Source: Neolecta irregularis DAH-3
Lineage: Eukaryota; Ascomycota; Neolectomycetes; Neolectales; Neolectaceae
DNA: 28,169 nt
Assembly: GCA_001929475.1 (NCBI GenBank)
Contig: LXFE01000337.1
Location: 1-28,169, forward strand
Direction of reading: 5' to 3'
Below the pieces are notes generated by a model. That model searched no databases. It saw only the letters and a list, made by a program, of their open reading frames with translations, and was not told where the DNA came from. Shown here one piece after another: positions 1,415 through 25,017 of the stretch. How positions within the stretch are numbered: the first letter of the stretch is position 1; each line of letters opens with the position of its first letter. The position numbers were made by a program, and so were the translations under genes.

Positions 1415-2744
1415 ATGGTCAAAGGTATCTCCTTGCTGAAAAGAGGTACCAATTGGTCAAGTACTTGCTGTTCTCTACAAAGGCGGAAAGCACGCTTTGG
1501 AAGAACCCCGTCTTCTCGGGACTACAGAAAACGAGCTTGGCCTTCGAGAGTACTTTATTTCTAGTCTGAAATGTCGCTTGACTCTACAGATGGCTTGAAT
1601 CTCAAGGACATCACTACATTGTTATAGACGATAAAGATGGTTCCAATTCCGTTTTTGAAAAGCATCTGGTCGATACCGAAATTCTTATTACGACCCCGTT
1701 TCATCCCGCATATCTTTCAAAGGAGCGAATGGCAAAAGCAAAGAACTTGAAGCTCTGCGTTACTGCCGGCATTGGTATGATTTCTCTATTCTTTGCCTGT
1801 ATCTGATATTCCCGCAGGCAGCGATCATATCAATCTGGACGCAGCAAATGAGTACAAAATCACCGTTGCCGAAGTCACTGGTAGCAATGTAGTCTCGGTT
1901 GCCGAACACGTAGTCATGACCATTCTCATTCTTATCAGAAACTTTATTCCCGCTCATGAACAAATTGTTGCCGGAGATTGTATTTCTTCCTTGGTTAAGA
2001 TCGCATTCATCTGGTATAGGGGATGTCGCTGCTGCTGCTCGACGTGAGTATGACCTCGAGGGAAAGGTTGTTGCGACAGTCGGGGCTGGGCGAATCGGGA
2101 CACGAGTCCTTCGAAGGCTGAAACCGTTCGATTGTAAAGAATTGCTTTATTTCGACTATCAACCTATGAACCCTGAAGCGGAGAAAGAAATTGGATGTCG
2201 GAGAATTAATGATCTAGAGGAGATGCTCTCTCTGGCTGATGTCGTTACAATTAACTGCCCGTTACACGAGAAGACGAAGGGCTTATTTAACAAACAGTTG
2301 ATTTCAAAAATGAAAAAAGGTATGCCCCAGTTCACTAAGGTATTAATCCACTATAGGCGCTTATCTGGTAAATACCGCTCGGGGCGCGATTTGTGTCAAA
2401 GAAGATATCGCGGAAGCAATGAATCGTGGTCACTTGAGTGGTTATGGGGGTGATGTTTGGTACCCTCAACCAGCTCCAAAAGATCACCCTTGGAGAACTA
2501 TGCCTTTTGTAAGTATTTATCGTGACTGCTAGTTGATAAGTAGAACGCCATGACTCCTCATGTCTCTGGTACCTCCATTGATGCACAAAAACGATATGCG
2601 GAAGGTACTAAGAGAATCATTGACAGATATTTCAAGGGCGTTGAACAGGATGATGCCGATGTCATTGTTACTGGAGGCCAATATTCCAGTGCGGCATATG
2701 GTCAACGATCAAAAGCTTCAGTAGGAGGTACCTTGAAAATGTGA
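1415..2744 (+). CDS. FDH1: NAD-dependent formate dehydrogenase
   Basis: Oxidises formate to CO2 with reduction of NAD; cytosolic C1 detoxification enzyme of the D-2-hydroxyacid dehydrogenase family. Exons 1415-1424, 1462-1549, 1590-1774, 1818-1979, 2020-2319, 2357-2508 and 2544-2744 join in frame to 365 residues, close to the fungal norm of about 365-375. Introns are 37, 40, 43, 40, 37 and 35 nt. The ATG sits in CACCATGG and gives [15 protein letters not shown]. Visible motifs are [11 protein letters not shown], the Rossmann motif VGAGRIG, INCPLH, NTARGA with the substrate-binding Arg, QPAPKDHPW with the conserved Gln, and [17 protein letters not shown] with the catalytic His. No stop or frameshift remains after splicing, so it looks functional. 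Odd points are the 10-nt first exon and about six residues missing between WRTMPF and NAMTPH relative to relatives. There is no mitochondrial presequence. Confidence 0.93.
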
Positions 2745-3229
2745 GCCACTTGGTGTTATGTTTGATATGTTACTTTGTGCATAAGGCATTTCAACAATAC
2801 AAAGCCTGATCAAGGGAATGGTGTGTCTATCTATCAACTCTGCTAAAGAAACTTCGGCGAATCGATATCGACTAATTTCTTTCATTTGAGTAATCAACTC
2901 ATACCTCTGGGAACGGAGTCTATACTCTTCCTTCTCGAACAAATAATCTGAATTACCCAGAAAAATGAGTTTTCAAATCCCAAATATACCTTTCCCGCAA
3001 GGGAAGGATGCAAACAAGGCTCGCTGGAAATCCCTATTATATGATATGTTTCATGCCATAGAATTGACAAAGAGGTGCAATGGGCAAGGATTGCTGATAT
3101 TTGGCTCACAATCATAGACTTCTGGACTTGTAAATAGGATAAAAGTCGTGGATATAAGATAGAATATGAAAATCAATTTGAAAACTCAATCCAACCAGAC
3201 AGCATAACTCGGTCCATACCCGCTTAAAA
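2745..3229. other. Intergenic between convergent genes
   Basis: Shared 3' flank of formate dehydrogenase (+) and the small secreted protein gene (-). Short frames only, with no recognisable gene or repeat. Confidence 0.5.
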
Positions 3230-3682
3230 TCAACATTGCCTCAATTTCAGGGGTGTCTTTGAACATCCATCGGGAGGGGCGCCTGTACTAGTTGAGGTGA
3301 CCAATGCATCCCATTCCTGATCCTTCTTACATCGATAGAATTGATAACCGCCACTTATCCCGATGTTGTAGTATCCGTCCAGAGTGAAATTGGCGCCGTC
3401 TGTTTCATCGTTTCCGAGTGAAATACTGTACCACTGGTCGTGGTTGTTCCAGTTACTAGTGATCTGCAAGAATCCTCCGGTGGTGTAATCATAAAGCTTG
3501 TTGGTGTCATAGTCATAGAACTGGATTGTATCCCCTGGGATTTGAAACGTTGCAAAACCTTCATAGAAAGCAATTCTCGAAGGATAAAAATCGGCATCGG
3601 CGGCGGAAGTTGAGTCAATGAGACAAGAATAAGCGGAAACTGTTGCGCAAAAGATCGCCGAGTAGATAGTGGAAAATCGCAT
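3230..3682 (-). CDS. Small secreted cysteine-containing protein
   Basis: A single uninterrupted frame encodes 150 residues. The N-terminus (MRFSTIYSAIFCATVSAYS) is a typical signal peptide, probably cut after residue 19 or near 28. The mature part is rich in Tyr, Asp, Gly and Thr and keeps four Cys: near residue 20, in FYRC, in DGC and as the last residue. The layout of FYRC, then C-x-x-x-P-x-x-L, then a terminal Cys resembles the C-terminal domain of fungal PIR-type cell-wall proteins and many cell-wall-associated small secreted proteins. A TATAAA box lies about 38 nt before the ATG. Extracellular or cell-wall location is well supported; a PIR-like fold is a guess from spacing. A role as an effector cannot be judged from sequence. 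Confidence 0.75.
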   Translation of the reverse strand: MRFSTIYSAIFCATVSAYSCLIDSTSAADADFYPSRIAFYEGFATFQIPGDTIQFYDYDTNKLYDYTTGGFLQITSNWNNHDQWYSISLGNDETDGANFTLDGYYNIGISGGYQFYRCKKDQEWDALVTSTSTGAPPDGCSKTPLKLRQC

Positions 3683-3719
3683 AGCGGTCTGGCACGACCA
3701 GAAAGCTCAAGGACGAGGC

Positions 3720-3725
3720 TTTATA
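3720..3725 (-). promoter_or_regulatory. TATA box of secreted-protein gene
   Basis: TATAAA on the minus strand, about 38 nt upstream of the ATG at 3682. The spacing is short but plausible for a strongly expressed small secreted protein. Confidence 0.5.
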
Positions 3726-4373: not shown

Positions 4374-4675
4374 CTATTCAAGGTTTAGCTCCCATTCAAA
4401 CATGCAGCTATCAATACTAGCTCTTTCTAACGCCTTTGCTGTCTTTTTAGCTTCTAATTCTGGTGCTCTAGCTACGATTTTTGCCCTTTCTTGAGTTGCT
4501 TTATCAATCACCTGTTGAATACTTTCAATAGTGGCAAATCAGCTATTTGGGTCAATTGGAACCCTTTTCCACACCTTCTTGTCCTGGAACTCCTGGATAA
4601 TTGATCCTTGCTGTTTAATAACTGATTCTTGCTGAGCTTGTTGAGCATTAAGCTGTGCAATTGCCTTCCCAGTTT
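4374..4675 (-). pseudogene. Pogo/Fot1-type transposase, C-terminal relic
   Basis: On the minus strand about 100 codons read as protein: AIAQLNAQQAQQESVIKQQ, then KRVPIDPNS, an in-frame TGA, then FATIESIQQVIDKATQERAK, and finally MFEWELNLE and a stop. The order (Gln-rich helix, basic segment, DPN-x-x-F-x-x-IE-x-I, charged helix, MFEW end) matches the C-terminal tail of fungal pogo/Fot1-type DDE transposases as I know them. The catalytic DDE domain is absent. The reading stops at 4676 where the second GC-rich repeat begins, so the repeat probably landed in or replaced the rest. The TGA and the truncation make it inactive. Confidence 0.6.
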
Positions 4676-5011
4676 AGGATGGGCGAGACGGGCTGGCGTG
4701 GTGAGTGAGGTGGGTGAGGCAGGGGAGAAGGAACACGGGGAGGGAACGACGTGTCAGGCACGTGAGACGGGCGGGCCAGGCGGGTAGGCACGAGGCGGGA
4801 GAGATAAGCAGGCGAGATGGGAGAGGGAGGTGAGACGGGCGGGCGAGGCAGGAGAGGCAGGCGAGACGGGTAACGGGAGTGCGAGGTGTGTGAGACGAGG
4901 GAAACCACAGGCTTTTCATGGGCCAGCTAAGCCCATGGCCTGTCCACAACACTTGAGGGCAGCAATATGGGCTGTATTGAACAGGGCTAAGCCCACAGCT
5001 GGTCCCCAACA
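4676..5011 (-). repeat. Second LTR-like repeat with GC-rich minisatellite
   Basis: On the minus strand it begins TGTTGGGGAC, as does the repeat at 431-826, and carries the CCATGGGC block and the same class of GC-rich minisatellite (4676-4900, variants of GAGACGGGCGGGCGAGGCAG). It also has an extra segment (GTGGGCTTAGCCC and related, about 4925-5000) absent from the first copy. The left end lacks the TGTTGTAAC terminus of the first copy, so it is truncated or continues differently into the transposase relic. No target-site duplication is seen. Long minus-strand Pro/Ser/Arg frames here are repeat translations. Confidence 0.5.
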
Positions 5012-5124
5012 CTGACTTGATGAAAGTTAGGAGTAGAGAGCAAATTACATACAAATCTTTTAGAATATATCAATGCTGAGTTTAGTTTGGGAAGAATTGT
5101 CACTCAATAATCAGCTACTACAAA

Positions 5125-5423
5125 GTCTAGACTGACTCCAAACTCTGCTCGCTATATATCCTGAAGCAAATGTAGCTCATAACAATGTCAAGATTTCATT
5201 CCCTATTCATTTGCCTGAACCAACGCTTATTCGATTGGGCGATCAAGAAATCAAAGTTGACTACCTACTGCCGGATGATTGCGATTTCCAAATCGGAGAT
5301 AAATATCCCGGAACCTCCTGCCTTGGGGATTTAATGTCGTTGGGTAGATACATCAAAAATCAAGGACTGTTTGCTGGGTATTTGGGCGGTGACACGATTC
5401 GATGTTCTGTATATTTGGTGCTT
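5125..5423 (+). pseudogene. Orphan coding fragment cut by a repeat
   Basis: An open frame from just after a TGA near 5125 runs without an early ATG and reads like real protein: LQTLLAIYPEANVAHNNVKI, then PEPTLIRLGDQEIKVDYLLP, DDCDFQIGDKYPGTSCLGDL and GRYIKNQGLFAGYLGGDTIR. Composition and codon use are protein-like, unlike neighbouring random frames. I do not recognise the family. The frame meets the palindromic repeat at 5424, after which it becomes low-quality. The best explanation is the internal part of a gene broken by repeat insertion; an internal exon of an unrecognised gene is the alternative. Confidence 0.4.
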
Positions 5424-5456
5424 GTGGGGATTCCCGGAACCCCCACAGCCACCAGA
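5424..5456 (+). repeat. 33-nt palindrome-bearing repeat, copy 1
   Basis: Positions 5424-5446 form a 23-bp palindrome (arms GTGGGG-TTCC / GGAA-CCCCAC) with one internal mismatched pair. The 33-nt block is repeated exactly in inverse orientation at 26034-26066. Similarity fades after about 5456. It may be an end or core of a short mobile repeat. Confidence 0.6.
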
Positions 5457-7451: not shown

Positions 7452-8736
7452 ATGTCGAGAGAGCATATAGTCATCGTCGGTATTCCCGATGATTAAGCAT
7501 AAGGAAGGCTCATAAAACAGGTGGAGGTATTCAAGGAGCATCAACAGCATATTATATAACCCATCACCAATCATTTTCCGCAGAAACTACAGATTTGACG
7601 CTTATTGAAGCTGTTTCTCCAGCATGTGCTGCCTCTGGAAATGCGGGTGGATTTATAGCTCCAAACTGGCATGGTAAATTAACGTCAAAATTGGCCGATC
7701 TCTCATGGCACGAACATCAACGTCTTGCGCAAAAGCATCCTAGGCTATGGGATTATATACAATTGGATACGTTTTCAGTCAAAGCAGATGAAAATTCTAA
7801 ACAAAGAGTGGTCTTGCCAAGGACAATTGATTGGTTGGATGGAAATGCCATTGAACATGCTGAGTTATTGGAACCAGAAATGATACTGCTCAGGTTCATC
7901 CGTATCGTCCGATTGAGAGAAGCATAATACCCATCCAAATAGATTCAAGCTGACAATCGGTCTTCTCAACCTGGCAAAAGATAAAGGCCTGAATGTAATC
8001 AACGGAAAGGTTAAATCGTTCGAGCAAAAGGCCGAATCGAAAGACATTGAATTTCTGATATACTCAACATCGAGTATGGAACACCAAACTTTGAAAGTCA
8101 CAAAAGTCATTTTTACGTTGGGCCCATGGACTTCTTCGCTTCTTCCCCAGACAAGAATCACTGGTCAACGAGCTCATGCTATCACCATTATTCCTACTCG
8201 TCCAACAACTCCACATGCATTCTTTACCTCAGTCACATCTAAGGGCGAAATTCTTGATGAACCTGAGATATATGCACGACCAGATGAAGTTTATGTTTGT
8301 GGGGAAACAGACAATGAACCTTTGCCTGAAACTGCAGACCAAGTCAAGACCGATGTTGAGAAATGCAAAAAGCTCCACCGCGCTGTCTGTTCGATTAGTC
8401 GGGTGCTACTTGAAGGGCATACCAACAGCCAGAGAGCATGTTACTTGCCTGTTGGCCCCATGAATGGTCCACTTGTAGGACGTGTCGGTAGTTTGGGGAA
8501 CTGTTGGATCGGTGCTGGGTATATATACATATCTTTATAAATTACTGATTATTAGACATTCTGTTTGGGGAATATGCCTATCAACTGGAACGGGGTTGGT
8601 GTTGTCTGAAATGGTAAGAGTTTGCCAAAAGAAAGATGTAATCATCTAGGTCATGAGTGGCAAGAAGATAGAAGACATTATTGGTAGTTATCCTTCTCCA
8701 GACTCTATGATTGGGTCATATCTGCCAGTATCGTGA
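7452..8736 (+). pseudogene. Tda3-like FAD-dependent oxidoreductase, frameshifted
   Basis: DAO-type flavoprotein related to yeast Tda3. Exons 7452-7479, 7521-7901, 7943-8518, 8556-8613 and 8650-8736 are separated by introns of 41, 41, 37 and 36 nt. The N-terminus splices to HIVIVGGGIQGASTAYYITH, the FAD-binding Rossmann motif, followed by LIEAVSPACAASGNAGGFIA. Later motifs are VIFTLGPWTS, LPVGPMNGPLVGRV and WIGAGHSVWGICLSTGTGLV near the C-terminus. Between ELLEPE and NDTAQVHP, at about 7877-7880, the frame slips by one base and no intron of normal form repairs it. Exon lengths sum to 1130 nt, one short of a multiple of three; one added base would give 376 residues. All splice sites and the rest of the frame look intact, so this is either a very young pseudogene or a one-base sequence error. 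Substrate unknown. Confidence 0.75.
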
Positions 8737-9071: not shown

Positions 9072-12000
9072 ATGACGTCTGAAGAGAAGCAACTACCTGG
9101 TCTTCCCCCAACTCCTCGACATATTTTCGCCAGCCGCAAACGAAAACCACCTAAAACGAGCCTCAAAGAAAAGATTGGCATTCCTTACGAACAAATTCCA
9201 CCCCAGTCATCGCCGGTTTCTGTTTCGTATTTGCCCGACCAGCACCGACCCCCGTCTGCTGCTTCTTCTTATCAACAAAACAGCCCGCCAAATTCTGTTC
9301 GCTCTCAGAATATGTACAGGTCAATATCAGACTACGAGCCGAGCATTCGAAGTACTTTGTCGCACGGGCTGCCTTCTGGACCTCGACCTGCTCCATCAAG
9401 TCGAGTATCAAATCATACCCATGCACCTCCCCAATCCTATCGCCAATTCGATCAGATGAGTGTAGCATCGTCAATGTCAAGAGGATCTGGAATGAGCGAC
9501 TTGGACGATACTCCGAGGAGTAGTTATACATCGCAAATTGGTCCAAACGGCGAATTCCGTATGGATAGACCAGATGATGACGCGGCTGTGGAGGCCATGT
9601 TCATTGACTTGATGGTACTCCTCATTTATATTGGTTTAACATGGCAGAATAAGCGTGATTTCAAGAATTTACCAGAAAATGCACGGCGGCAGCTAATGGG
9701 ATATGATCCAGATAAGAAATGGACTTTGATCCATTCAGGCGCTATGGCTGAACATAACTCCAACGTGATGATCTTCTACAAAGACTGTTTTTAAGTTTCA
9801 GAAACGCCGACTTCACCAAGGATTAGGTCACGACAGAGATGTGCCGGAATGGTATGTGAGGAAAATCGTGGAACACAAAATATCTCTCAAGTTGTTGTCA
9901 TCTCTGAGTGTCTCTTTGCGAACCCTGACAATCAGGTAAGAAAATACAATAAAATCTTATTGACTTTAATAGCTGGGTGCAGAAATTTATCGATTTACAT
10001 GGACAAACAGCGTTGACTAAGATTCTCAGCGAGATAAACCAGCGTCCATCAAAGCAAATGTAGGATATTCTTTATTGAGTTTGCTTGATTTCTAGAAAGG
10101 AAGAAGATATCGAACGCGAATATGAGATTATCAAATGCATGAAATCACTACTCAATAATAAAGCATGCCTTTTGAGCTATTGTTTACTAATATCTAGTAT
10201 GGAGCAGATGATGCAGTAGATTCTCAAAGCTGTATATCTGCAATTACTGCCTCTTTGATCTCACCACATCTTCCAACCCGGAAGCTCGTCGCAGAAATTC
10301 TCACCTTCATTTGTCACTGGCAGAAACCTCTTGGTCATACCAGAGTACTTCAAGGCCTAGATAGCCTTCAAACAAAACTCAACGAATTTGGTCGCTTCGA
10401 CGCATGGCTTCGAGTTCTCGAGCACACGATCGATGGAAGAGGAAAAATGGGCAGTCTCGTTGGTGCAAGCGATGAAATTCGCAGAGCGGGTCTTGGAACC
10501 GATAATCTACTGATGGAGTATACACTTGCAAATCTCTTTCTTATCAATTCGATTTGTAACGGAGGGGAAGATCTGAATCTTAAAGTTCATATACGAGGAC
10601 AACTCCGTGGGTGTGGTTTTCATATTCGTTTAATGGGGAAAATGAAGAACTTTGGATACGACTTAATTGATAAACAACTCAACAAATTCGAATTGGAAGA
10701 GGCTACAGACTTTGCTGAATTGTCCGTACAAGAAGGTCGCGAGGAGCTTCAAAATATCGAGGATCCGGTTGAAGTTGTTCAAGCAATCTTGCGAAGAAAT
10801 GAAGGTACTCGAGCAGATGGATATTTTCTATCATCTTTACAGCATTTGTATCTTATTCCTGATGAAGGGGAGATTCGTTCGAGGTTATTTCAACTGTTTG
10901 ATGCGATTACAACGTATCTAGTGATGGATCGACGAGGCGCTGATATGACGGTTACTCAAGCGCTGAATATTCCAATTCATGACATTCTTGATCGACTACG
11001 GAGCGACGAGGAGGCGCAGGTTGCGATTGAAGATGCTAGAGAAGCTCGGTCGCTTGCCGAAAGGCTTGCGGTAGAACGAGATACCATCGCTGCACAGATA
11101 GAAATGGGTGCTGATGGACTTGTTAAACAGCTCCGCCAAGAAATAGAGGACCAGAATGAAGTTATAGAAGCTCAGAAACGAACAAATGAGACTTTACGCA
11201 GAGAACTTGAGGACCTTCAACAAGCACAGTTGAAGCAATCTCAGGAGAGTGAACTTGAAATTAGAGAACTCTACATGATGATTCGCGAAGTTTCACCAGA
11301 GGAATGGGACACATCGGGGGTTTTGGACCGTAATCAACTCATCGAGAAACTCGAACGACAACTAGAGCGAACAAAGACAGGTTATAAGTTGGAAGGGAAA
11401 AATTTCGATGCAGAAGGGCCGAGTGAAAAACTTTTGGTATCTTTAACCGCATTTTTCTCGGTTCTTACTCTTAGCGAATGAGAGAAAAGATGGATAAGGA
11501 GAGACTTACGAGGCTTGATCAAGAGCTTGGTCATCTCCGGAGTTTTTCCGGTGAAACTGAGGGTCATGATTCGCCTTTATCACCCGATGGCATGGATGGG
11601 CCATCATTATCAGCATTCTTTGGTGTATGTGTCGCCCCTGCTGAAAATCGGTTAATTTCCAGTCTTCGCGATCCCGGTCAACTCATGTTACTCGAAAGGC
11701 CTCTCAGTCGTCTGGATTTAGCTATCCAGGCGGTCACCGGCGTTCTGAAACACAGGACTTGATGCTCGAAGAAGGCGACGCAACAATCGAAAAGACTCAT
11801 GTCGTCCGTCTTCGCAAAGCATCTGCTGGTAAACCGGCATTTGTCAACGAAATTATCCCCAGGACGAATAAGGTGGACGGAAGCGACGATGACTATGAGT
11901 CAAAAGGCAGCGAAAATGGAAAAGAATCAAATGTTACGGCGCCCACTTCACACATCGCCAGCGAGAATGTTGAAACATCTAGAGTTTGGGTCAATGTCAT

Positions 12001-14578
12001 TCCTAGTGATGCTGCCAATGGAAACCTCGGCGAGGAAACTACAGTTGTTGCTGAAAATCCAGATGAGACAACCCAGGACGAGGCACTCTCAAAAGCCCAC
12101 CATACTACCACTGAAGGCGAACCATCCAGCAGCAAACATGAAAACGAAAGTGACGATCAGACCCATGTTGGATCTATGGGAATTCAGCTGGAAAATAAAC
12201 ATGGCAATGAATCTGCCGTTGTATCGTCTCATCCACCATCAAATCCAAACCCAGAGAGAGAAACCTCATCAAACGAATCAATACCTAAGATTCCGATTGT
12301 TTCTGTACCTCCTCCACCTCCAATACCATCCACATCAACAGTTGCTATCCCTACAATCATTGTTCCTCCTCCCCCACCACCACCGCCGTTATCTGGCTTC
12401 AATGGTCCACCTCCGCCTCCCCCGCCTCCCTTACCAGTGAATGCACAATCGTTACTTGTATCTCCACCTGTCCCACCTCCTCTACCAGGTTTAACTCCTG
12501 GTCCAGGGCCACCGCCTCCTCCCCCTTTGTCTGGTTTATCACTGGCTGGTCCGGCTCCTCCACCTCCTCCACTGAGCGGCATTCGAGCAGGAAAAGTGAA
12601 ATCAACCATCTCTAATGGTGATTCAAACCTGCCATTACATACCGGCGAAATTGGATTATCAGGAATACCTATAGTTAATCCACAAATCAGAGTTCAGAAG
12701 ATTTCAGTCAGACCGAAAAAGAAATTGAGGCAAATGCATTGGGACAAATTAGACACAAACATTGAGTTTACTGCGTGGGGAGATAAAAAGCTCGACGCAA
12801 ATGTACTATGTAATAAACTGCGAGAACGGGGCCTCCTTGAAGACATTGAAAAAATGTTTGCCATGAAGGAGATCAAGGTTAAAATAACCGTTCAGAAGTC
12901 GGATAAGAAGCAGTATATGCCTCATAATTTGAGGCAAGCCATGGGTAATTTTCGTAAAGATTAGGATGCATTGAATGTCTAGATATTAATCTCCGACCCT
13001 GGGTTAACATCCCAGAGCTTGAATTCGTCAGGAAAGTCCTTCGCTGTGAGAAAGACGTTCTAGAAAATTCCGTCGTAATGAACTTTCTCGGAGATGAGAA
13101 AATATGGAGAAATGAAACTTTGGTAGTTTCTAGAACCATGTCAGATCTGATCTTCAAGGCACATAAATTGATTTCCTATTCTACAGACTGGTCATCGCAA
13201 AAGAACAAACCTACTTCTAACCCCGACGAATTGGACCGAAATGATCGTATATGGCTTGAGCTGTGCTACAATTTAAGACCATACTGGGGTAGACGAATGG
13301 CCGCTCTCAACATGACTCAGTCCTTTCAAGAATCTTATCAGATTTTCGTCGCGGATATTAAGTTGTTCTCGAGAGCATCAGATGCAATTAGAAAATCTCA
13401 GTGTTTTCGAGAGATACTTGATGTCATCCTTCATGTTGGGAACTTTATGAACGATACAAGCAAACAAGCGAATGCCTTCAAACTCAGCTCACTACAAAGA
13501 TTACAATACACCAAGACCGACCATGGGAATCTTACCTTTTTACATTTCGTGGAGAAGGTTGTCCGGGATATGTTCCCTGAACTTCAAGAGTTCCTTGAAG
13601 ATCTGGCTATATGTAAGGAAGCCGCATCCCGTATATTTTCATATCCCGTTCTGTGCTAATGAGTCAGGATCGGTCAAAAGCACCCAAGAAGAATGCAATA
13701 AATTCCTTCAGGAAATCAAGCTTATTGAAAACTCCTTGGGTCAAGGCGTCCTCTCGGATTCCAAGAAATTTCACCCGGAAGATCGAGTTCTTAGCATTAT
13801 TGTTCCTGCACTCCCAGAATTCAAGAAGAAAGCGACATTTCTTCGAGAACATCTCGATAGCATGATAACTACATTTGATGATACGCTCCGCTTTTTCGGA
13901 GAGACGGCTGGAGATGCAAATGCTCGTGACGACTTTTTCAAGATGATTACACTTTTCCTTAATGATTATGTCCGGGCGAACCGCGAAAATATGGAAAGAG
14001 AAGAAAAGGAACGAGCTCTCGAGCTCCGTAGACGCGCACTGGGGAATGCTCAGATCACCGCAAAACATCGTCAGGATATGATGTTTGATAATTCTGGGAA
14101 ACAAATCGACCATTCACTTATGGATAATCTTCTTGAAAAACTTCGTGCAGGACCCGATACAGCCCGAGAACGAAGGCGGCAACGCAATGCAATGATTGCA
14201 AGTCCTACTTCCTTGTCTGGGACCATGAAAAATAACCAACCACCAGTTGTTGATCTTACGACTACTTCTGCTCCTGGCAACGCAACATTAAATATTGCCT
14301 TGCGGGCTCAAAATATGCTGGCTGGTCTCCGCGGACAGACTCCTACTCCTTCGGTAGCTAGCGAATCATTCGAGTCAGATACTTCCACTTCGACAGTAAT
14401 AACTCCTTTAACAATCGCCAACGATACTCGTCATACGCGTCGTCAGACCGAATACCTACTGAACCAGTTTCTCCTGGAAAAGGAACGATCACCATCTCCT
14501 AGACCATCAACAACTGAGTCCTTGATGCCCTCACAGTTAGTCGATGATTCTCAGGCAGAAAATAAGGTACAGGAGTGA
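9072..14578 (+). CDS. SepA/Bni1-type formin
   Basis: Nucleates unbranched actin cables and the cytokinetic ring at growing tips and septa, activated by Rho GTPases. Ten exons join to 1725 residues: 9072-9614, 9648-9764, 9802-9935, 9973-10059, 10096-10162, 10198-11436, 11475-11624, 11663-12944, 12983-13630, 13668-14578. Introns are 33-38 nt and the fifth is GC-AG. Order: disordered N-terminus with GIPYEQIPPQ, GTPase-binding/FH3 region from about residue 180 (NLPENARRQLMGYDPDKKWT; RKLVAEILTFICHW; GRGKMGSLVGASDE), coiled coil about 610-720, FH1 polyproline about 995-1086, FH2 about 1126-1540 (LRQMHWDKLD; HVGNFMNDTSKQANAFKLSS), and a DAD near 1572 (MDNLLEKLRAG, then RRRQRN). FH2 and DAD together indicate an autoinhibited diaphanous-related formin. 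The ATG at 9072 is the first in the coding frame; an upstream exon cannot be excluded. Confidence 0.93.
9615..9647 (+). other. 33-nt stop-free intron in formin
   Basis: The stretch begins GTACTC and ends GGCAG, is divisible by three and has no stop, so it reads through as eleven extra residues. Removal restores the FIDLM-NKRDFKNLPENARRQ join expected for the formin GTPase-binding region. I call it an intron on that basis. Confidence 0.75.
10163..10197 (+). other. GC-AG intron in formin
   Basis: 35 nt, starting GCATGC and ending TCTAG with a perfect TACTAAT branch-like site. No GT donor in range gives a working frame, whereas GC-AG removal yields SLLNNK-YGADDAV, which is the expected formin sequence. 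Confidence 0.8.
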
Positions 14579-14811: not shown

Positions 14812-16215
14812 TTAGGCCTGGACTGAACGTTCTCCATCTTTGTCAGCATTAGTTTGCCTATCGTTTCTTCTATGGAATCTCCATCTCTGACTCTTTCTAA
14901 TGTCTGCCACATTGAGATACTGCACTGCTGGCTCCTTCAAATAGTCAAACTTGATCGTAGGATTTAGCGCCATAAACTGAAAAGCCTTCTCGGAGCTTTC
15001 CGGTTTATTCAATACGATAACTGCGATTGTCCGCTCAAAACTCTAAAGGTCAAGGATAGAAGAAGGACGAGGCTACCTCATCAGGGAGTATTTCACCGCG
15101 GATAACTGGAGCATTATAGAGATTGGTCAAGTTTACTGTCACTTTAAGGTCGTACTGGATAGATATTTGAGGAAGAGAAATTGATTGGGGGAGATCCTCT
15201 GGAATATGAATGATTCCAGTGAGATGTCGTAAGCTGACTCGAAACGGGTATATTCTTGCGTCTACAGCTTCAAAATACCTTGAACAATGTCGAGTGGTGC
15301 CGACTGAAGCGCACTTGTCCTGCTTATCTGGAATGGTCAAGGTGCAGAGGAGGTCCAGCGAATAAGAACTCAGTTCGAGCTTTCTGTTCCCCTTACGCTT
15401 TATACCAAATGAGATTGAAAGATCTGATCCTCGGTATGCGATAATGGGTTGTTGAACAGAAAGCCAAAAATCAAGATGATCTGTCAATTCAAGAAATCGA
15501 TGTAGAGGGATGATCTTGCGATCATAGTCAATCCCGTCCAGCAAAAATCGTTTGTTTAAAGGCTTGAGGAATGTTGGGAAAGCGGGTAAGGAGTGGTGTT
15601 GCTGCAATGACTCGACACATATCGAGCAAATTTCGACAGGGAATCTATCACGGAACCTAGAAACTGCTGTTAGTTGAAGATTATAGCTTTTCTTAGCAAT
15701 AATTTCCAAATTTCACATACTGAATTCTATAATTCTTACCGTAAATTCCAGAGCTTGGTAGAAGAGTATATGGACAGGTCTGGTTGAAAATCTTCCAATA
15801 ATCAGTGGATGATACATCCCTTGCAATAATTTTGAAAGATGATCCTCTTTTGAATTTGGTTTGGTATGAGATATTGAGCATGTACACCGGTATTTCCATC
15901 TCTGGGAGGGTGACGGGGAAATCTGTCAGCAGTCGTCCGTCTCTATACAACGACCATGAGAAGAGATTCCTACTGAAAAACTATTGACTATAAGCAAGTG
16001 GAATAAGCTGAACATGCTAGATCTTTGTAATCCCCCGGGCAATCGCTCTTCAAATCATCTGAAATATACCCATGAAGATCGAGAGACATATTTACGAGGC
16101 TGTGCCTGTCGATATCACCAAAGACAGTTCCTTTCAATGGTTCTCCTGCAACCAATCGAGGGTTTCCTTCAGCAGAAATGAAGTTCTGGATTGGTTTGAA
16201 GAGAAGGTTGGGCAT
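14812..16215 (-). CDS. Arrestin-like domain protein
   Basis: Exons (minus) 16215-16018, 15980-15721, 15686-15077 and 15042-14812 join to 432 residues; introns are 37 (GC-AG), 34 and 34 nt. Early sequence AGEPLKGTVFGDIDRHSLVN followed by SLDLHGY matches the start of arrestin N domains (P/AGE-x-hx-G-x-V, then a beta strand with L-x-L-x-G). Late sequence GIIHIPEDLPQSISLPQISI followed by QYDLKVTVNL matches the C domain. Fungal proteins of this fold act as ubiquitin-ligase adaptors for membrane transporters or in pH signalling; no PPxY motif is obvious, so the role is open. The 5' end is uncertain: a second ATG at 16258 opens an overlapping frame (MNVDCDSTAILMSCYAQ) that could be the true N-terminus if an unseen splice or indel joins it. 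The middle intron could alternatively be 73 nt (15667-15739). Confidence 0.6.
15981..16017 (-). other. Probable GC-AG intron in arrestin-like gene
   Basis: 37 nt, starting GCATGT and ending CAATAG on the minus strand. No GT donor nearby gives a compatible phase. GC-AG removal joins GDYKDL to FFSRNLFSWSLYRDG in frame. The donor resembles the GCATGC donor in the formin gene. Confidence 0.5.
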
Positions 16216-16633: not shown

Positions 16634-18823
16634 TCAGTTACTAATCTGGGATTTGGTCCATCCTTCGAGTCCACCTTTAACAAACAATTCCTGAACCATT
16701 CCGCCAAGTTCGCCAACACTTTCCGACCAATGCTCTTCTGAATCTTCAGTAATGAAAACCTGACTCCTCCTAATATCCCATCGAAATATCCATCCAGTAC
16801 GAACAGTCGGACCTCCATTTTTGAATTTTTCTCGAAGACGAGAAATAAGTCTCGGGACTTCAAGACATAGCAATGCATTATTGATACAGTTCCGCTTGAA
16901 AATATCGCCAAATGAACCTGAGACCACAAGGGTAATTTGTCGCGAGCGAAGCGCAGTGGCTGCTTGTTCTCTAGATGACCCTGTTCCGAAATTGAATCCA
17001 GAAACAAGGATGTCGCCCTGATATTAGTCTAGAATCCATGTACAAAGAGTTTACGGGTTTGCATATACGACTAAACTGTGAATCATAATTCTCCATACAA
17101 ACCTGTGACATTTTCTCCTTTGAGATATTGTCTTGATATGTATATTTACCTGGATAGATTGCGTCAGTATTCAAATTATTCACATCACAAAAAAGGATCG
17201 CTCCCTCAATAAATTCAGGGAACCCAGGAATGATATCAACATTCATGGTACTGGCATTCTTCTTAGCAGAATTCAGAACTTGGATCGAAGTCTTTGGGAT
17301 TGCACTGTCATAGTGAAATCCCTCTGGCCCAGCGATCTTTCCAGCTAATGCACTAGCTGCAACGACAGCAGGACTAGCTAAATAGACAAGTGCCTTTGGA
17401 CTTCCCATTCTTCCCTTAAAGTTTCGATTCGTTGCACTGATTCCGGTTTCTCCGTCTTCGAGTAGCCCAGTTCCAAGTCCTACCTAATCAACCCAAAATG
17501 GAATAGAAATATATACCGATACATGGTCCACAGCCGCTAGGAAGAGGTTTTGCCCCGGCCTCTAATAGAGCTCCCCAATCTCCAGAATGTTCAGCGTCGA
17601 GTTGAACTTTAGAACTGGCAGCAGCAATGTAAAAGTTAACTGCAGGAGAAATTTTTCTGCCTCTGACGACAGAAGCGGCAGCAGAGATATCAGAAACTCG
17701 TGAATTTGTACAAGAGACCAGATATGCCTTTTGAATTGGAATATCTCGTTTAGTAAGATCAGGTAACGCAGTCGACAATTTGACGCTATTCGGACCGGAT
17801 ACATGAGGTACCAAAGTAGATAGATCGAGCGTTAGATGTTTTGCATAAATGGAATCAGGGTGAATTTTGAATGGAACAGCCTCTAGTTGTTCAATGCGTT
17901 GATTAGACAATCTGGAATTTCCCGGGTTTCGTTCTGATAAAGCGTAATACCACTCTAGTAATATCTTATCAACGGGAAAGAGGCCGCTCAAGGCACCCCA
18001 TTCAGTAGTCATATTGGCAATTGTAAGACGTTCATCGATTTCCAGAGCACCTACTCCGGGCCCCACGAATTCGATGGCATGATTGAGGACTTCGTCTTTA
18101 TTAAACATTCCACATAGGGCGACAATGACGTCCTTACCAGTAACACCATGCCTTAAAGAACCGGTTAACTCAACTTTTGCGACAGGTGGAATCTGCCACC
18201 ATGTTCGGCCAGTTGCCCAGATCGCAGCTGCATCTGTACGGACAACTGGAGTTCCCAGACAGCCTACGCCTCCGTACATGTTTGAGTGTGAGTCGGATGC
18301 AACTGTCATAGTGTAAGGAAATGCATAGCCTTCTTCGACTATGATTTGATGTCCAATTCCACGGCCAGCAGGATAGAAATCAATTCCGTGTTTTCTTGCA
18401 AACTGTTCTATATTGCGGTACTTTTGGAGATTTTCGAGAGATTTATTCTGGACGTCGTGGTCCAGTGTAAGCACTGCCTGTCGAGAATCGTAGATTTTGG
18501 ATGCGCCAATGTTTATGAATCTGCGATGTCAATTGATTTTCCTGATCATAAATTACTTTTGCGCGACAGGCCATGCTATTCCATCAGCCATACGGTCCAC
18601 TGGACTCCTTACAGTTATCATGCGACATGACATGTTCTGGCTTTATCGAAACATAGTCTCCACTATGTACAAATTTTCCGGGTTGTAAACCAACTGCGTA
18701 CTTTTGAACGATTTTCTCAGTAAGAGATTGTGCAGGAACGGATGCAATCGTAATCGATGCAAACCTCCATCTCAGCGCAAATTGATTTTGTCGAGGAACA
18801 CGGTTGAGCGGACGAGTTATCAT
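16634..18823 (-). CDS. LYS4: Mitochondrial homoaconitase
   Basis: Converts homocitrate and homoaconitate to homoisocitrate in the fungal alpha-aminoadipate route to lysine. Exons (minus) 18823-18613, 18575-18557, 18520-17517, 17479-17055 and 17017-16634 join to 680 residues, the usual size. Introns are 37, 36, 37 and 37 nt, and the second exon is only 19 nt. The ATG gives a basic, acid-free presequence ([20 protein letters not shown]), consistent with mitochondrial import. Motifs: [34 protein letters not shown] across the microexon, [35 protein letters not shown] with Cys about 347 and GCGPC with Cys about 407 and 410 (4Fe-4S ligands), [14 protein letters not shown] and [18 protein letters not shown]. 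The latter two belong to the swivelling domain and favour homoaconitase over isopropylmalate isomerase. It looks intact. Confidence 0.93.
18557..18575 (-). other. 19-nt microexon of LYS4
   Basis: Flanked by introns 18576-18612 (GTAAGG...ATAG) and 18521-18556 (GTAATT...GCAG). It supplies residues of the conserved HDNSWPVAQKF segment, so skipping it would shift the frame and remove part of the active-site region. Confidence 0.85.
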
Positions 18824-19508: not shown

Positions 19509-20305
19509 CTAGAGGTACGCATCATCTTGAGGTCTATTATTTGGAGGGTTGTTAATTGCTTGTTTCCACTTTGTTTGATTTGCAGATTTAGGTTGGAAAG
19601 ACGGTTTGTAAGGCAGTAAAGGCATTCTTCCAGGTGGACTTCCTTTATCAAAATCAGGATAGAGATCATCAAAGGCCTGCTGTAGTTCTTTTTCTTTGAA
19701 TTGTCGTAGAATGGCATACCCAAGACTGCATTGCTTCCAGGTCTTGCCTCCCCGCTTGTACGATCAGCAATAAAAACAATAGGAATTCAAACTCGCAGGC
19801 CGAGCAACAAACGACCTTGCTCTTTGCTCAAAATACCCTTGGACTGTCTCGGTGATGAAAGATTCTGAACTTGTAATTCTTCAAAGATGCCAGATTTTCC
19901 CACATGCCGCGATTCAGATAGTCTTTTCGATACGATGGGTTGAGGCTTTATATGGTTCTGGCTCGAAGAAGATTGGGATCCTGATTCTGCGGACCCTCTA
20001 GGGCCTCTGTATAACTGATTCCATTTGAATGTTGAGCGTGGTTTTTGGAAAAGGACATTTTCAAGGGTTCCAGATTCTTCATTCTTCATGTTCAGTTGCT
20101 TGTATACAAGATCGAATATCACTGTGACGTTTCTTGGGATTCTTCTCTCTCGGCGACTAGCCACTTCTCTCGCAAATGGTTGTATTCGAATTGAAGGACT
20201 GGGTACGACTGTCCGGGAACGAGAAGTCACAGCGGTTTCAGTGAGACTGCAAGTCGATTGATACTCTGAATCAGAATCATCGCTGATTTCGATAACTTGT
20301 GGCAT
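19509..20305 (-). CDS. Protein with SUMO-interaction-like motif
   Basis: Exons 20305-19793 and 19754-19509 (minus) join across a 38-nt intron (GTTTGA...ACAAG) to 252 residues. Residues 3-12 are QVIEISDDSD, a hydrophobic core followed by acidic and Ser residues as in phospho-regulated SUMO-interacting motifs. The middle is Ser/Arg-rich and probably disordered. The second exon looks conserved and structured: GGKTWKQCSLGYAILRQFKE, then ELQQAFDDLYPDFDKGSPPG and RMPLLPYKPSFQP. I do not recognise the family. The upstream in-frame extension to 20395 has no ATG, so 20305 is the start. A nuclear role is suggested by the SIM-like motif only. Confidence 0.6.
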
Positions 20306-20712: not shown

Positions 20713-22788
20713 CTATTCAATAATAATGCCTAATGCCGGACAAGTACTTCCCAATTTCGTCTTCATTTCTTTCCATTCTTCGTCGATGCCACCTAAAGCT
20801 GTGATTGCTCCACCAGCTCCTACTTTCCATTCTCCATCAATTTTCTCCTGTACTGCGGTACGGATAACAACGCTGAAGTCTCCATTTCCACAAACACTCC
20901 AGTATCCAAGAACCCCGCTGTATATACCACGTTCCTCCTCTTCGAGGGTTTGAAGGATTTCAACAGAGCGTTTTTTGGGTGCCCCGGTCATGCTACCAGG
21001 CGGCAACGACCGGCTCAGCACATCAAAGCCTGTGTATGGTGGAGATAGTTGACCTTGAATAACACTGACAAGTTGAAAGACAGTCCGATATTCCTCGACC
21101 TGCATCAATTTTGGAACAGTTACATCGTCTGTAATACAATGTAAATCATGTCGAATAAGGTCGACGATCATCAGGTTCTCGGCCATTTCCTTTGGGACTC
21201 GAAGTTTACTTTCCGCTTCCGCGAATGTTGTGGTTGGAGTTTTGCGGATTGTGCCCTTTATTGGGCGAAGTTCAACTTTGCCATCACGAGTCCAGCTTAG
21301 AAATCGCTCTGGAGATGAGGAAAGTACTGTTGTTGAACCGAGACGGAGGTATGCCGCATAAGGTGCTGGATTTCGTGAACGTAAAGAATGGTACAAGGAC
21401 CACGAAGGAACATCTAACGGTAGAAGCACTCTTGTTTGAGCAGTCAGACATAATTCATATGAATTTCCGGATAAGAGATGTTCGGTACATTTTGCAATAT
21501 TCGATTTGTATTTTGCTTCTTCTGGTATTGAAATTTCAGCCCGATGATTTGTGGATATAGGCGGCGGCGATGCTGTAGCGGTTTGAAGCAGCAAAGCTGT
21601 CTTATTTACCCAATCATCATTCTGCTGAAGACTCTGAATATAGATCATCGACTTGTGTGTATCGATAACAACACTCCGGAAGACAAACACCAAATTCACA
21701 TCTGGACGATGACGTGAACCTCGAACGGCTACATTGAGGCTCGAGACACCGGCTTCGTAACTGAAATATCCGATTAGCCCGCCAGAAAAGGGAATATCAG
21801 GGAAAACCGGCGACGTAGCTCGAGCAGCCATGAATTTCGCTAGCCAAGACCATATGTCTCCCTCATGCGGTAGAGTGGTAGCACATCCGTTTTGTGTTAC
21901 AGTAACATGTAGATCATGGATGAAATACTGTATGATTTCCGACTTATTGCACGGAACTCCGACAAGGGAATATCGTCCGGGGACCGAGAGAGACTCTAAT
22001 AAAGTGACAGGATCTTCCTTATGGAGGTTGAGTCGCTGCACAATATCTGTTCCCAGAAGAGTAGATTGTAATGCAATACCAGTACCACGAGATAAGTTCA
22101 CTGACGTTATAGAACTCGGTAGAGATTGTGGCATGATGTCGAAATCAAAATGACACTCGAGTTGTCTTGATGGTCGATTGCTCTTGTTCCAGTTTGAAGC
22201 CAAATCCCAAAAGTTTAATATCAGCCGATTGCCTTCAGTCGAGCACACTGATTCAGGATGGTATTGAACACCCCAATAAGGCTTGTAAGGATGTCTTACA
22301 CCCATTAAAACTCTACCGTTCTCCTCATCATCTGCCCAGGATAGTGCTTCAAGGTCTTTTGGAAGTGTACAATGCAGTGAATGATATCGAACAGCTTGTA
22401 TTTCCTTGGAGTTGGCGTAAATGTCTGAAGCGAAGTGCTCAAGGAAGCTGATTTGCCCGTGTTTGACAGCTGAAAGCCTTTTAACTTCCCCACCAAATGC
22501 CATGCACAAGGTCTGCATTCCAAGACATACACCTAGTGTAGGAATATCGCAATTCCAAACATGACCGATCACACCAATATCTTTGGGGTTGGATGGATTT
22601 CCGGGCCCAGGGCCGATCACTACGGAATCAAAAGCCGGCAAATAGAGTTGAAGTTCTTCCAAAGAAAACTGATCGTTCCGAATCGTAACTACCCGGGATC
22701 CGGGTATGTTCTTCAATAACAGGGATCTCAAGTTATAGGAATAACTATCATAGGAGTCGATTAGGAGAATTCGAGGCACTGGAGACAT
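20713..22788 (-). CDS. ABZ1: Aminodeoxychorismate synthase (PabA-PabB fusion)
   Basis: Makes 4-amino-4-deoxychorismate from chorismate and glutamine for p-aminobenzoate and folate; cytosolic. One intron-free frame of 691 residues. Residues 1-200 are a class I glutamine amidotransferase: IGPGPGNPSNP, then GVCLGMQTLC with nucleophile Cys88, and QYHPES with His177 and Glu179. Residues about 240-691 are the chorismate-binding synthase domain: GGLIGYFSYEAG, ELCLTAQTRV, SSSPERFLSW, RPIKGTIRKTP, DLIRHDL, VFQLVSVIQGQL, PPGSMTGAPKKRSVEIL and GIYSGVLGYWSV. GATase first, then synthase, on one chain is the fungal and plant aminodeoxychorismate synthase arrangement; fungal anthranilate synthase normally keeps the synthase on a separate subunit. 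The PIKGT lysine favours PabB over TrpE. It looks intact. Confidence 0.93.
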   Translation of the reverse strand: MSPVPRILLIDSYDSYSYNLRSLLLKNIPGSRVVTIRNDQFSLEELQLYLPAFDSVVIGPGPGNPSNPKDIGVIGHVWNCDIPTLGVCLGMQTLCMAFGGEVKRLSAVKHGQISFLEHFASDIYANSKEIQAVRYHSLHCTLPKDLEALSWADDEENGRVLMGVRHPYKPYWGVQYHPESVCSTEGNRLILNFWDLASNWNKSNRPSRQLECHFDFDIMPQSLPSSITSVNLSRGTGIALQSTLLGTDIVQRLNLHKEDPVTLLESLSVPGRYSLVGVPCNKSEIIQYFIHDLHVTVTQNGCATTLPHEGDIWSWLAKFMAARATSPVFPDIPFSGGLIGYFSYEAGVSSLNVAVRGSRHRPDVNLVFVFRSVVIDTHKSMIYIQSLQQNDDWVNKTALLLQTATASPPPISTNHRAEISIPEEAKYKSNIAKCTEHLLSGNSYELCLTAQTRVLLPLDVPSWSLYHSLRSRNPAPYAAYLRLGSTTVLSSSPERFLSWTRDGKVELRPIKGTIRKTPTTTFAEAESKLRVPKEMAENLMIVDLIRHDLHCITDDVTVPKLMQVEEYRTVFQLVSVIQGQLSPPYTGFDVLSRSLPPGSMTGAPKKRSVEILQTLEEEERGIYSGVLGYWSVCGNGDFSVVIRTAVQEKIDGEWKVGAGGAITALGGIDEEWKEMKTKLGSTCPALGIIIE

Positions 22789-23015
22789 CTAAGGCTAATC
22801 TAACGCAAATTAACGGATTTCCTTAGCTAGCAACAATACCACTCAAGGAATCGCCAGTGGTGAGTCAAAAGAACAAGATAATTATTGGGCGCGACTAAAA
22901 ATAAAATTTCTCGAGTTTGAGAGTTAATTATTCTGCCACCCCATCAGGCGAAACAACAGATGAGATGCTGGAATCTCATACATGTGGTGTTATCTAGTAA
23001 CCCACATTGGATGAA
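22789..23015. other. Intergenic, ABZ1 5' flank
   Basis: Short promoter region of ABZ1 and 3' flank of the BAH-PHD gene. No other signal. Confidence 0.45.
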
Positions 23016-23816
23016 TCAGTAAATGTTATTATAACAAATCAAGCAATAAACATCTATCGTTACTTTTTCCATATCAGCATCAATCCATGATGCCTTTAAA
23101 CACTCTTTGTCATTAATAAAGAAGATTGGGAATTTTATAGAATGAATTTCACGGATCCGCTTCTCTAAACATTTTTGATGTAGCCATATCTGGCAGCAGC
23201 TGCACAACCACATGGGCTCATCGGCAGAATGGGGTTCCAGGCATTTACAATGATTCTTTGGTTTCTGACTTGTCAGTTCAACAATTGAATGGGAATACTG
23301 TCAGCTGCCCCTTCAAGGGACAAAACTTTTGCCTCCAGTAGAATGTTTGAACCAATTCATTTTCATTCTTATGTTCCCTCCACTGTATACAGGAACATTT
23401 TGCAGCAATTGTGTAGGCTGAAATGACCTGTTCCCAATCGGACCATATGACCTCATCTTCCCCATGGTACTTTTGACGACCACAGGGAAGCTCTTCAGGA
23501 CGATAGTACCAGCGGATTAGCACATAGACCTCCTTTTCGGTTCGAGCTCGAATTTCGACGATTTGCGCAATCCAATAAACTGAATTTTTCATATTTACGG
23601 TTGTTTCCTTGTTGTCATTGCTATTGTTGACCAAAACGTGATCTTTGACGCTTAAAAGCTGATCAGAAACTCGAATTAATTAGAATGTACAGGAAATCAA
23701 ACCATACTAGTACAAGATTCAAAGCGATCCAATCTATGCCAATCATCTGGTGCATCGTCGGGGAAGCGGGCTCTCACAGTCATTTTTATGTTGGTGGGAA
23801 AGATCCCTTCTCGCAT
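23016..23816 (-). CDS. BAH-PHD chromatin protein, EPR-1/BP1-like
   Basis: Exons (minus) 23816-23708, 23669-23299 and 23264-23016 join through introns of 38 and 34 nt to about 242 residues. The BAH domain runs from LLSVKDHVLVNN through YWIAQIVEIRARTEKEVYVL, RWYYRPEELPCGRQKYHGED and ending at FYWRQKF. A PHD-type zinc finger follows: HCKCLEPHSADEPMWLCSCC, IWLHQKCLEK and a distal YCLIC pair, with an insertion before the last pair. BAH-PHD proteins of filamentous fungi (Neurospora EPR-1, Fusarium BP1) bind H3K27me3 and repress Polycomb-type targets. Trp and Tyr in the BAH core are compatible with an aromatic cage, but the cage is not proven here. The 5' end is unsure: the frame stays open upstream to a TTTTCAG acceptor at 23995, so an earlier exon could add about 60 residues. 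Confidence 0.7.
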
Positions 23817-24386
23817 TTTATAAATTCTTCCCGAGAGTGCAAGTCTACAGACCTTGCTAGCCTGTTTCCGTCGGCAAGCTCCGTGATGTATTACATTAAC
23901 AGCTGAAGCAGATGCCTCTGAGAAACGCACAATTCGTTCAGCTCCGCGTTCATATTTCAGTGAAGGAAGCTTAAAATAGGATATCGGCTTGAATCTGAAA
24001 AAAAAGTGTCAACATGAGAATTTAGAATAAAATTTCAAAGGAGCGCAACTGGTCACTTTAAACACTTTGGAAATTCGCTATATTAGACTACGGTTGAAGG
24101 AAAGAAATGTTGGAGGTATAGAGTCGGATCAGCGCTCATCCAAAGGAATAACGAGATCCCGGCTTAAATCCCGTCGCGTCAATCTTCATCCTTCCAAACC
24201 AACCTTGGGAGCTATTATCGAGTCCGTCCGGTCTTTGACAAGAGATTGTGTGGAGGGACGGTTATTAGGAATTTTGGAAAGTAGCGAAAAGATTAGCCGA
24301 TATGGGTTTTATAGCGGTTTCCAAACTGAGACTAATTAGCGACCTTTTCCAACAACTGTTCCTCTGACCTACTTAGTTCTGCGAGT
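23817..24386. promoter_or_regulatory. Divergent promoter of BAH-PHD and SNRNP27-like genes
   Basis: It separates two head-to-head genes. Up to 23994 it may also be coding for the BAH-PHD N-terminus. A 90-codon plus-strand frame at 24067-24339 lacks motifs and sits in the expected 5' region, so I do not call it a gene. Confidence 0.4.
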
Positions 24387-25017
24387 ATGGGATATGACAA
24401 GACAGACAGCCAGCGTGATAGATCAAGAGACCGAAATGCGAGAACTCGCAGAGACCGCTCGAGAAGCCCCCGGGTTTATGGTATAGTCCTTTTTCGAATT
24501 GTTTTAATCTCAAGACCGCAGAGATGACAAACCATACGATAGACGACGACGAAGCCCTTCTCGCGACCGGGATATGGGCGGAAAGGGATCTCGAGTGCGA
24601 TCTGAGGATATTAATGGACGATTTTCGAGAAAAAAAGACCGGAGGAGATCGCCGTCGAGAGAACGAACGCAAGACTATCGACAAATATCTAGAAGCCCTC
24701 GGAGACACACCCGGTCTCCCTCAAGGACTCGAGAACTGCATAAAGATGGACCAGAGAGACCGGCCACACGCCCTGGAGAAGGTTGTGGTCACATACGAAG
24801 CACTCTAACATTTGCAGATCATCTTGAGCCAGCCCCGGAAATAGACGAAGAGGCTGGACTAATGAAGCTGATGGGATTTTCTGGATTTTCTTCTACGCAA
24901 GGCAAACATATTCCCGGAAATACCGCAGGTGTTCTTAAGAAAGTAAAACCTCAAAAGTTCCGACAGTACATGAATCGACCTGGCGGATTCAACAAACCTC
25001 TGGAATCTAGCTCGTAA
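24387..25017 (+). CDS. U4/U6.U5 tri-snRNP 27 kDa protein (SNRNP27-like)
   Basis: Spliceosome component expected in the tri-snRNP. Exons 24387-24480 and 24515-25017 join across a 34-nt intron (GTATAG...TCAAG) to 198 residues. The first 110 residues are rich in Arg-Ser, Arg-Asp and Ser-Pro (GYDKTDSQRDRSRDRNARTR; SRSPRRHTRSPSRTRE). The C-terminus LMKLMGFSGFSSTQGKHIPG, then KFRQYMNRPGGFNKPLE is the signature of the SNRNP27 domain (DUF1777): M-x-x-MGF-x-x-F-x-ST-x-G, then YRQYMNR-x-GGFNRPL. The ATG at 24387 is followed directly by RS-type sequence. A splicing factor sits in a genome whose introns here are all 33-43 nt, which may be coincidence. Confidence 0.9.

What the first reader, a model, noticed from the sequence alone, without database searches (positions are those of the whole stretch)
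1415..25017. Uniformly tiny introns across eight genes
Thirty introns resolved by frame and protein continuity measure 33-43 nt: FDH 37,40,43,40,37,35; FAD gene 41,41,37,36; formin 33,37,37,36,35,38,38,38,37; arrestin-like 37,34,34; LYS4 37,36,37,37; SIM gene 38; BAH-PHD 38,34; SNRNP27-like 34. Filamentous ascomycete introns are usually about 50-70 nt. A hard ceiling near 43 nt suggests a lineage with compacted introns and perhaps adapted spliceosome geometry.
Basis: partly seen in the sequence, partly recalled or inferred. Interest (0 to 1): 0.75.

Follow-up and report, generated by a model that had tools for sequence, protein, structure and literature searches.

The report
Very short introns in Neolecta irregularis
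The window is a piece of the genome of the fruiting-body fungus Neolecta irregularis, and the tiny introns noticed there are real and recur in its other genes: most are about 31 to 44 letters long, shorter than the averages reported for its relatives, but they carry ordinary splicing signals.

Summary
All 30 reported lengths fit the sequence; one more 36-nt intron was missed, giving 31 introns of 33-43 nt, median 37. One (TDA3-like gene, intron 2) is 41 nt only if a one-base frame disagreement upstream is accepted; the public gene model uses 49 nt. The contig belongs to Neolecta irregularis DAH-3: spliced LYS4 is 100% identical over 680 aa to its NCBI protein on a 28,169-nt contig.

The pattern extends beyond the window: 54 of 67 frame-changing exon pairs in four large protein families and Slu7 estimate 30-44 nt, and 59 of 60 confidently placed introns (of 98 junctions tried) are 31-44 nt. 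There is no hard ceiling: one is 71 nt. Anatomy is uniform: branch motif YTRAY, branch A about 27 nt from the 5' splice site and 8 from the 3' end. Nothing found shows an altered spliceosome; U2AF stayed unresolved. No RNA was examined. Short introns are a known kind; this is an extreme ascomycete case.

The parts
1415..2744 (+). Formate dehydrogenase gene; introns 1425-1461 (37), 1550-1589 (40), 1775-1817 (43), 1980-2019 (40), 2320-2356 (37), 2509-2543 (35)
   Evidence: Spliced 365 aa aligns with 6t8y over residues 1-361, E 2.7e-169
7452..8736 (+). TDA3-like FAD oxidoreductase; introns 7480-7520 (41), 7902-7942 (41; public model 7894-7942, 49), 8519-8555 (37), 8614-8649 (36)
   Evidence: Model with the 49-nt intron equals NCBI P0241; homologs read keep TAQVHP or a close variant, which fits the 41-nt choice in another frame
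9072..14578 (+).
   Evidence: 1713 aa; equals NCBI P0121 except 7 residues caused by the GC-AG choice; P0121 has Drf_GBD, FH3 and FH2 domains
14812..16215 (-). Arrestin-like gene; introns 15981-16017 (37, GC-AG), 15687-15720 (34), 15043-15076 (34)
   Evidence: Open spliced frame; Arrestin_C 27.4 bits, cut-off 27.7; unguided search agreed on 15043-15076 only
16634..18823 (-). LYS4 homoaconitase; introns 18576-18612 (37), 18521-18556 (36), 17480-17516 (37), 17018-17054 (37)
   Evidence: Spliced protein identical to NCBI P0001, Neolecta irregularis DAH-3
19509..20305 (-). SIM-motif gene; intron 19755-19792 (38)
   Evidence: Open spliced frame; no Pfam family; unguided search chose others
23060..23816 (-). 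BAH-domain gene; introns 23670-23707 (38), 23265-23298 (34); 3' end uncertain
   Evidence: BAH domain 42.6 bits; unguided search agreed on the second and chose 44 nt for the first; no stop codon at the end used
24387..25017 (+). SNRNP27-like gene; intron 24481-24514 (34)
   Evidence: SNRNP27 81.4 bits; single solution
20713..22788 (-). Intronless para-aminobenzoate synthase-like gene, for contrast
   Evidence: 691-aa open frame; GATase and chorismate-binding domains

Best explanation
These are ordinary U2-type spliceosomal introns of Neolecta irregularis, shrunk to near the shortest workable size across much of the genome. Shown here: the lengths; GT (86 of 91) or GC (5 of 91) donors; a YTRAY branch motif; a branch A typically about 27 nt from the 5' splice site and about 8 nt from the 3' end. 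Inferred: a conventional spliceosome recognises each intron as one short unit (intron definition), and both segments were trimmed by deletion until spacing limits stopped further loss. Neolecta is published as having far more introns in shared genes than Taphrina or S. pombe, though fewer than Pneumocystis; with the short lengths this suggests compaction by shortening rather than by intron loss.
For: Organism: LYS4 100% identical over 680 aa. Public gene models share 16 of the 18 introns that I placed in the three genes compared (LYS4 4 of 4, formin 9 of 10, TDA3-like 3 of 4); the other five genes were not compared with the public models. 99.4% of predicted genes are reported as RNA-seq supported (PMC5309816, passage seen). 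Beyond the window: 67 frame-changing exon pairs, median 37, 54 in 30-44; 60 placed introns, 59 at 44 nt or less, 56 in 30-41. Gene-free test: 84 donor-to-acceptor pairs at 30-41 nt against 46 in the reversed sequence, with 10-27 per full 6-nt bin elsewhere (one donor pattern of three). 66 of 91 introns have a YTRAY with its A 5-13 nt before the end, random expectation 12%. Tentative U1 with ACTTACCT near its 5' end, U2 with GTGTAGTA. Intron numbers in 1,211 orthologs: Neolecta 4202, Pneumocystis 4842-5289, S. pombe 862, T. deformans 639 (PMC7940399, passage seen).
Against: No RNA reads were examined. Sites in the 60 were chosen with a splice model trained partly on the same set; it has no explicit length term, but a mild term against long introns and a term for agreement with the protein-based estimate. 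The frame-changing estimate cannot see introns whose length is a multiple of three. 38 of 98 junctions were not placed confidently, so longer introns could hide there. Only 8.96 of a published 14.5 Mb were searchable, in conserved domains. In two of three donor patterns the gene-free test shows a weak bump or none. The U1 candidate scored 43.7 bits, below its gathering score 69.5, and three Sm-site strings that I looked for in it were absent. The same paper reports about 26% of Neolecta introns as independently acquired, so the history is not shortening alone.
Confidence: 0.88

Rival explanations
1. Spacing itself is a signal: because donors are weak, the fixed 5'ss-branch-3'ss distances act as a ruler that helps tell introns from exons.
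For: Donor information about 5.7 bits over 9 positions, G at +5 in only 43% (Fusarium 93%); length distribution about 3 bits tighter than flat over 30-100 nt.
Against: Exons are not depleted of look-alikes of the right size: 14 seen, 14.1 expected from synonymous shuffles (40 shuffles, 14.6 kb). The depletion found was at 45-58 nt (5 against 14.0), which this idea does not predict.
Confidence: 0.12
2. The spliceosome of this lineage is structurally adapted to very short introns.
For: Branch A to 3' end median 8 nt, against 12 in S. pombe (PMC4079972, passage seen; there most introns under about 75 nt gave no branch point).
Against: U2 and a tentative U1 have conventional recognition sequences; Prp18 (46.2 bits for the better of two exons) and Slu7 (155.4 bits) match. 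U2AF large subunit: only RRM-like matches below cut-off (17 matches, best 51.3 of 310.3 bits), in an incomplete genome, so inconclusive.
Confidence: 0.07
3. The short introns are a local peculiarity of this contig.
For: None found.
Against: 59 of 60 placed introns from other contigs are 44 nt or shorter.
Confidence: 0.02
4. Many segments are not introns but frame errors or unspliced DNA.
For: One frame disagreement in the TDA3-like gene.
Against: Public models and solved or homologous proteins match the spliced products of FDH, LYS4 and formin.
Confidence: 0.02

Closest known systems
Taphrina species introns (Taphrinomycotina)
   Same: Short introns in a small genome of the same subphylum
   Different: Published mean 48-51 nt and about 2 exons per gene (PMC4007546 Table 2); Neolecta here median 35-37
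Schizosaccharomyces pombe introns
   Same: Short introns spliced by intron definition (PMC5728500, passage seen); similar branch motif (recalled)
   Different: Mean 81 nt; about 36% of introns under 49 nt and branch to 3' end median 12 against 8 here
Pneumocystis introns
   Same: Intron-rich relatives with short introns
   Different: Mean 61 nt in P. jirovecii
Fusarium introns (Pezizomycotina)
   Same: CTRAY/TTRAY branch sites, mostly YAG ends
   Different: 42-529 nt, median 57, G at +5 in 93%; here G at +5 in 43%
Ciliate and nucleomorph minimal introns (recalled, no call)
   Same: Narrow length peak near a minimum
   Different: Shorter still, about 15-25 nt, in unrelated lineages

Membership tests
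U2-type spliceosomal introns | GT-AG or GC-AG ends | tested here: met
   86 GT, 5 GC of 91; all AG. GT/GC and AG were required when introns were sought, so only the GT:GC ratio is free
U2-type spliceosomal introns | Branch motif near the 3' end | tested here: met
   66 of 91 with YTRAY at 5-13 nt, 12% expected
U2-type spliceosomal introns | Removal restores a conserved protein | tested here: met
   FDH, LYS4, formin; inconclusive for the SIM and arrestin-like genes and for TDA3-like intron 2
U2-type spliceosomal introns | Removal seen in RNA | not testable with these tools
   No reads available; published statement of 99.4% gene support
Genomes with a narrow minimal-intron peak | Genome-wide narrow short mode | tested here: met
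   67 estimates and 60 placed introns; conserved domains only, 8.96 Mb
Genomes with a narrow minimal-intron peak | Hard upper limit at 43 nt | tested here: not met
   44, 44 and 71 nt
Neolecta irregularis | Identity to the named genome | tested here: met
   LYS4 and TDA3-like proteins 100% identical on a contig of the same length, 28169
Adapted (altered) spliceosome | Changed or lost core recognition parts | tested here: inconclusive
   U2 conventional, U1 tentative, Prp18 and Slu7 present; U2AF large subunit not resolved

The most novel reading that the evidence does not exclude
Neolecta kept an intron-rich gene structure but squeezed nearly all introns to the spacing minimum, so that intron size itself carries recognition information that its weak donors lack: genome compaction by shortening rather than by loss, in a fruiting-body-forming fungus with a yeast-sized gene set.
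Probability: 0.2. Interest if true: 0.6.

Novelty: new member of a known kind. Interest (0 to 1): 0.4.

Why it matters
It gives an ascomycete with introns near the practical minimum and ordinary-looking splicing parts, useful for asking how small a conventional intron can be. It also has a practical side: in this one contig the public gene models appear to miss a GC-AG intron and use a doubtful 49-nt intron, so gene finders may mis-annotate such genomes. On whether it is in print: a search for Neolecta with intron listed 16 papers, of which I saw passages of 3; I also saw passages of the genome paper and of 3 others, and the listings. None of what I saw states a Neolecta intron length; supplements could not be read and 13 of the 16 papers were seen only in the listing.

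Tried and rejected
A home-made gene finder with no length preference, trained on about 53 kb of long open frames, was too weak: it fused genes with spurious introns, though it recovered several of the same short introns. A 7-nt branch-motif search without prior gave a blurred motif. Whole-window tRNA and Rfam scans found nothing. Estimates above 44 nt (13 of 67) were checked by letters: 6 resolved to 31-41 nt with margin 1 or more, 1 is a 71-nt intron, 6 stay unresolved. Dropped before counts: 41 of 112 exon pairs with profile gap over 6 and 4 same-frame pairs; 14 of 112 pairs never made into junctions because they keep frame or span over 420 nt; 38 of 98 junctions that had no solution, more than one intron, profile gap over 7 or margin under 1. 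The Prp18 pair had a gap of -10 and is not in the 67. The decoy-depletion test went against the ruler idea; there the BAH gene had no stop codon at the end used, and the TDA3-like gene was left out. Paper look-up one search was not held.
Full report
WHAT IT IS. The window is the whole of contig C309 (28,169 bases) of an assembly of 8,961,725 bases in 363 contigs. The spliced LYS4 protein is 100% identical over 680 aa to 'Homoaconitase, mitochondrial [Neolecta irregularis DAH-3]' on a contig of the same length; the other listed hits are at 67% identity or less. The formin and the TDA3-like oxidoreductase also hit proteins of this strain (99% and 100%). Neolecta is in Taphrinomycotina, Neolectomycetes. 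Published facts seen in passages: 14.5 Mb, N50 16 kb, 44% GC, 5,546 predicted genes, 99.4% with RNA-seq support; the word intron does not occur in the main text (PMC5309816). So about 62% of the published assembly was searchable here.

THE OBSERVATION. I placed 31 introns in eight genes: 33-43 nt, median 37, mean 37.0, s.d. 2.2. FDH, LYS4, formin and SNRNP27 rest on strong protein evidence. The six introns of the arrestin-like, SIM and BAH genes are weaker: an unguided search recovered two of them and preferred other sites for four.

ANNOTATION COMPARED. LYS4 equals the public model. My formin differs from it in 7 of 1,713 residues, all due to using a GC-AG intron at 10163-10197 instead of a GT-AG intron at 10182-10216, both 35 nt; three of four homologs carry NNKYGADDA there, as my version does. 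The TDA3-like public model is reproduced exactly with a 49-nt intron (7894-7942). Homologs read carry TAQVHPYKFT or similar; the window encodes DTAQVHPFKLT across the 41-nt version (7902-7942), but in a frame that does not meet the upstream exon. I read this as a one-base discrepancy in the gene or the assembly; which one is open.

BEYOND THE WINDOW. Pfam families Pkinase, DEAD, Cpn60_TCP1, SNF2, Prp18 and Slu7 were searched in the genome. Neighbouring exon matches give intron length from protein alignment alone. Of 112 pairs, 71 have a profile gap of 6 or less and 67 of these change frame: median 37, 54 in 30-44, 6 in 45-50, 7 above 50. This cannot see lengths divisible by three. I then had letters for 98 junctions (with loci already held) and placed introns exactly. 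With a single intron, profile gap 7 or less and margin 1 or more, 60 of 98 remain: 31-71 nt, median 35, 59 at 44 or less. The 71-nt intron lies in a Cpn60_TCP1 gene on C343 and has clean signals. Hence the mode is narrow but there is no absolute ceiling.

GENE-FREE CHECK. In 207,293 bases (window plus 20 stretches), the donor GTA[ACT][AGT]T followed by YTRAY and AG gave 35 pairs at 30-35 nt and 49 at 36-41, against 22 and 24 in the reversed sequence; the other full bins held 10-27 pairs, and 16-39 in the reversed sequence (965 and 1,056 donors). The pattern GTA[AT]GT showed a weaker bump (13 against 8 at 36-41, 8 against 10 at 30-35; 156 and 239 donors). GTAAG showed none (5 and 6 against 15 and 16; 208 and 581 donors).

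ANATOMY. Over 91 introns: branch motifs mostly CTGAT, CTAAT, CTGAC, CTAAC and TTGAC (57 of 91); nucleotides after the branch A median 8 (77 of 91 within 6-13); 5' splice site to A median 27. 66 of 91 have a YTRAY with A 5-13 nt from the end; random expectation 12%. Donors are weak: A at +3 78%, T at +4 58%, G at +5 43%. Branch sites were taken as the best-scoring motif, so their strength is somewhat inflated.

MECHANISM. Shown: sequence anatomy, protein continuity, wide occurrence. Inferred: splicing by a conventional spliceosome through intron definition, and reduction by deletion down to spacing limits. A U1 candidate carries ACTTACCT near its 5' end; at 43.7 bits it is below its gathering score 69.5 and three Sm-site strings that I looked for were absent, so it is tentative. 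U2 (132.8 bits) holds GTGTAGTA on its RNA strand, which I read as the reverse complement of the printed stretch; the script's own string test looked at the other strand and found nothing. Prp18 and Slu7 matches exist; the need for Slu7 in budding yeast depends on branch-to-3' distance (reference title seen). U2AF large subunit is unresolved. A ruler role for length predicts fewer look-alikes of the right size in exons; 14 were seen and 14.1 expected, so that prediction failed in 14.6 kb of exons.

KNOWN CONTEXT. Published mean intron lengths: S. pombe 81, P. jirovecii 61, four Taphrina species 48-51 (PMC4007546, passages); Novakomyces median 261 (PMC7912804, passages); Fusarium 42-529, median 57 (PMC5677156, passages). 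In 1,211 orthologs Neolecta has 4,202 introns, against 862 in S. pombe, 639 in T. deformans and 4,842-5,289 in Pneumocystis, which that paper calls markedly higher; about 26% of Neolecta introns are reported as independently acquired (PMC7940399, passages). Means and medians are not directly comparable. Together these suggest that Neolecta shortened rather than lost introns; I did not test that history.

VERDICT. Real and apparently genome-wide, an extreme member of a known kind. The proposed spliceosome adaptation has no support here.

Noticed in passing
window 7860-7942: The TDA3-like gene has a one-base frame disagreement before intron 2; the public model covers it with a 49-nt intron from a weak GTTCAT donor.
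   Followed up: partly
window 10163-10216: The public formin model appears to misplace one intron by 19 nt because the real donor looks like GC.
   Followed up: yes
window exons: Intron look-alikes of 45-58 nt were scarcer in exons than in synonymous shuffles (5 against 14.0; 0 of 40 shuffles as low). One of five bins, small numbers, unexplained.
   Followed up: no
window 535-710 and 4756-4896: Two GC-rich, purine-rich minisatellite-like tracts share related units (periods 22-58 nt).
   Followed up: no
window 5424-5456 and 26034-26066: A 33-nt perfectly complementary repeat 20.6 kb apart; the right copy lies near short repeats at 26188-26224 that look like transposon debris to my eye.
   Followed up: no
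window 3230-3682, minus strand: A 150-aa open frame that looks by eye like a small secreted protein, with no Pfam match.
   Followed up: no
window 5919-6812 and 20713-22788, minus strand: An F-box gene and a 691-aa PABA-synthase-like gene each form one open frame without an intron beside intron-rich neighbours.
   Followed up: partly
G000:C343:15419-15489 (L032, L108): A 71-nt intron, about twice the mode, in a Cpn60_TCP1 gene, with clear CTGAC branch motif and T-rich tail.
   Followed up: partly
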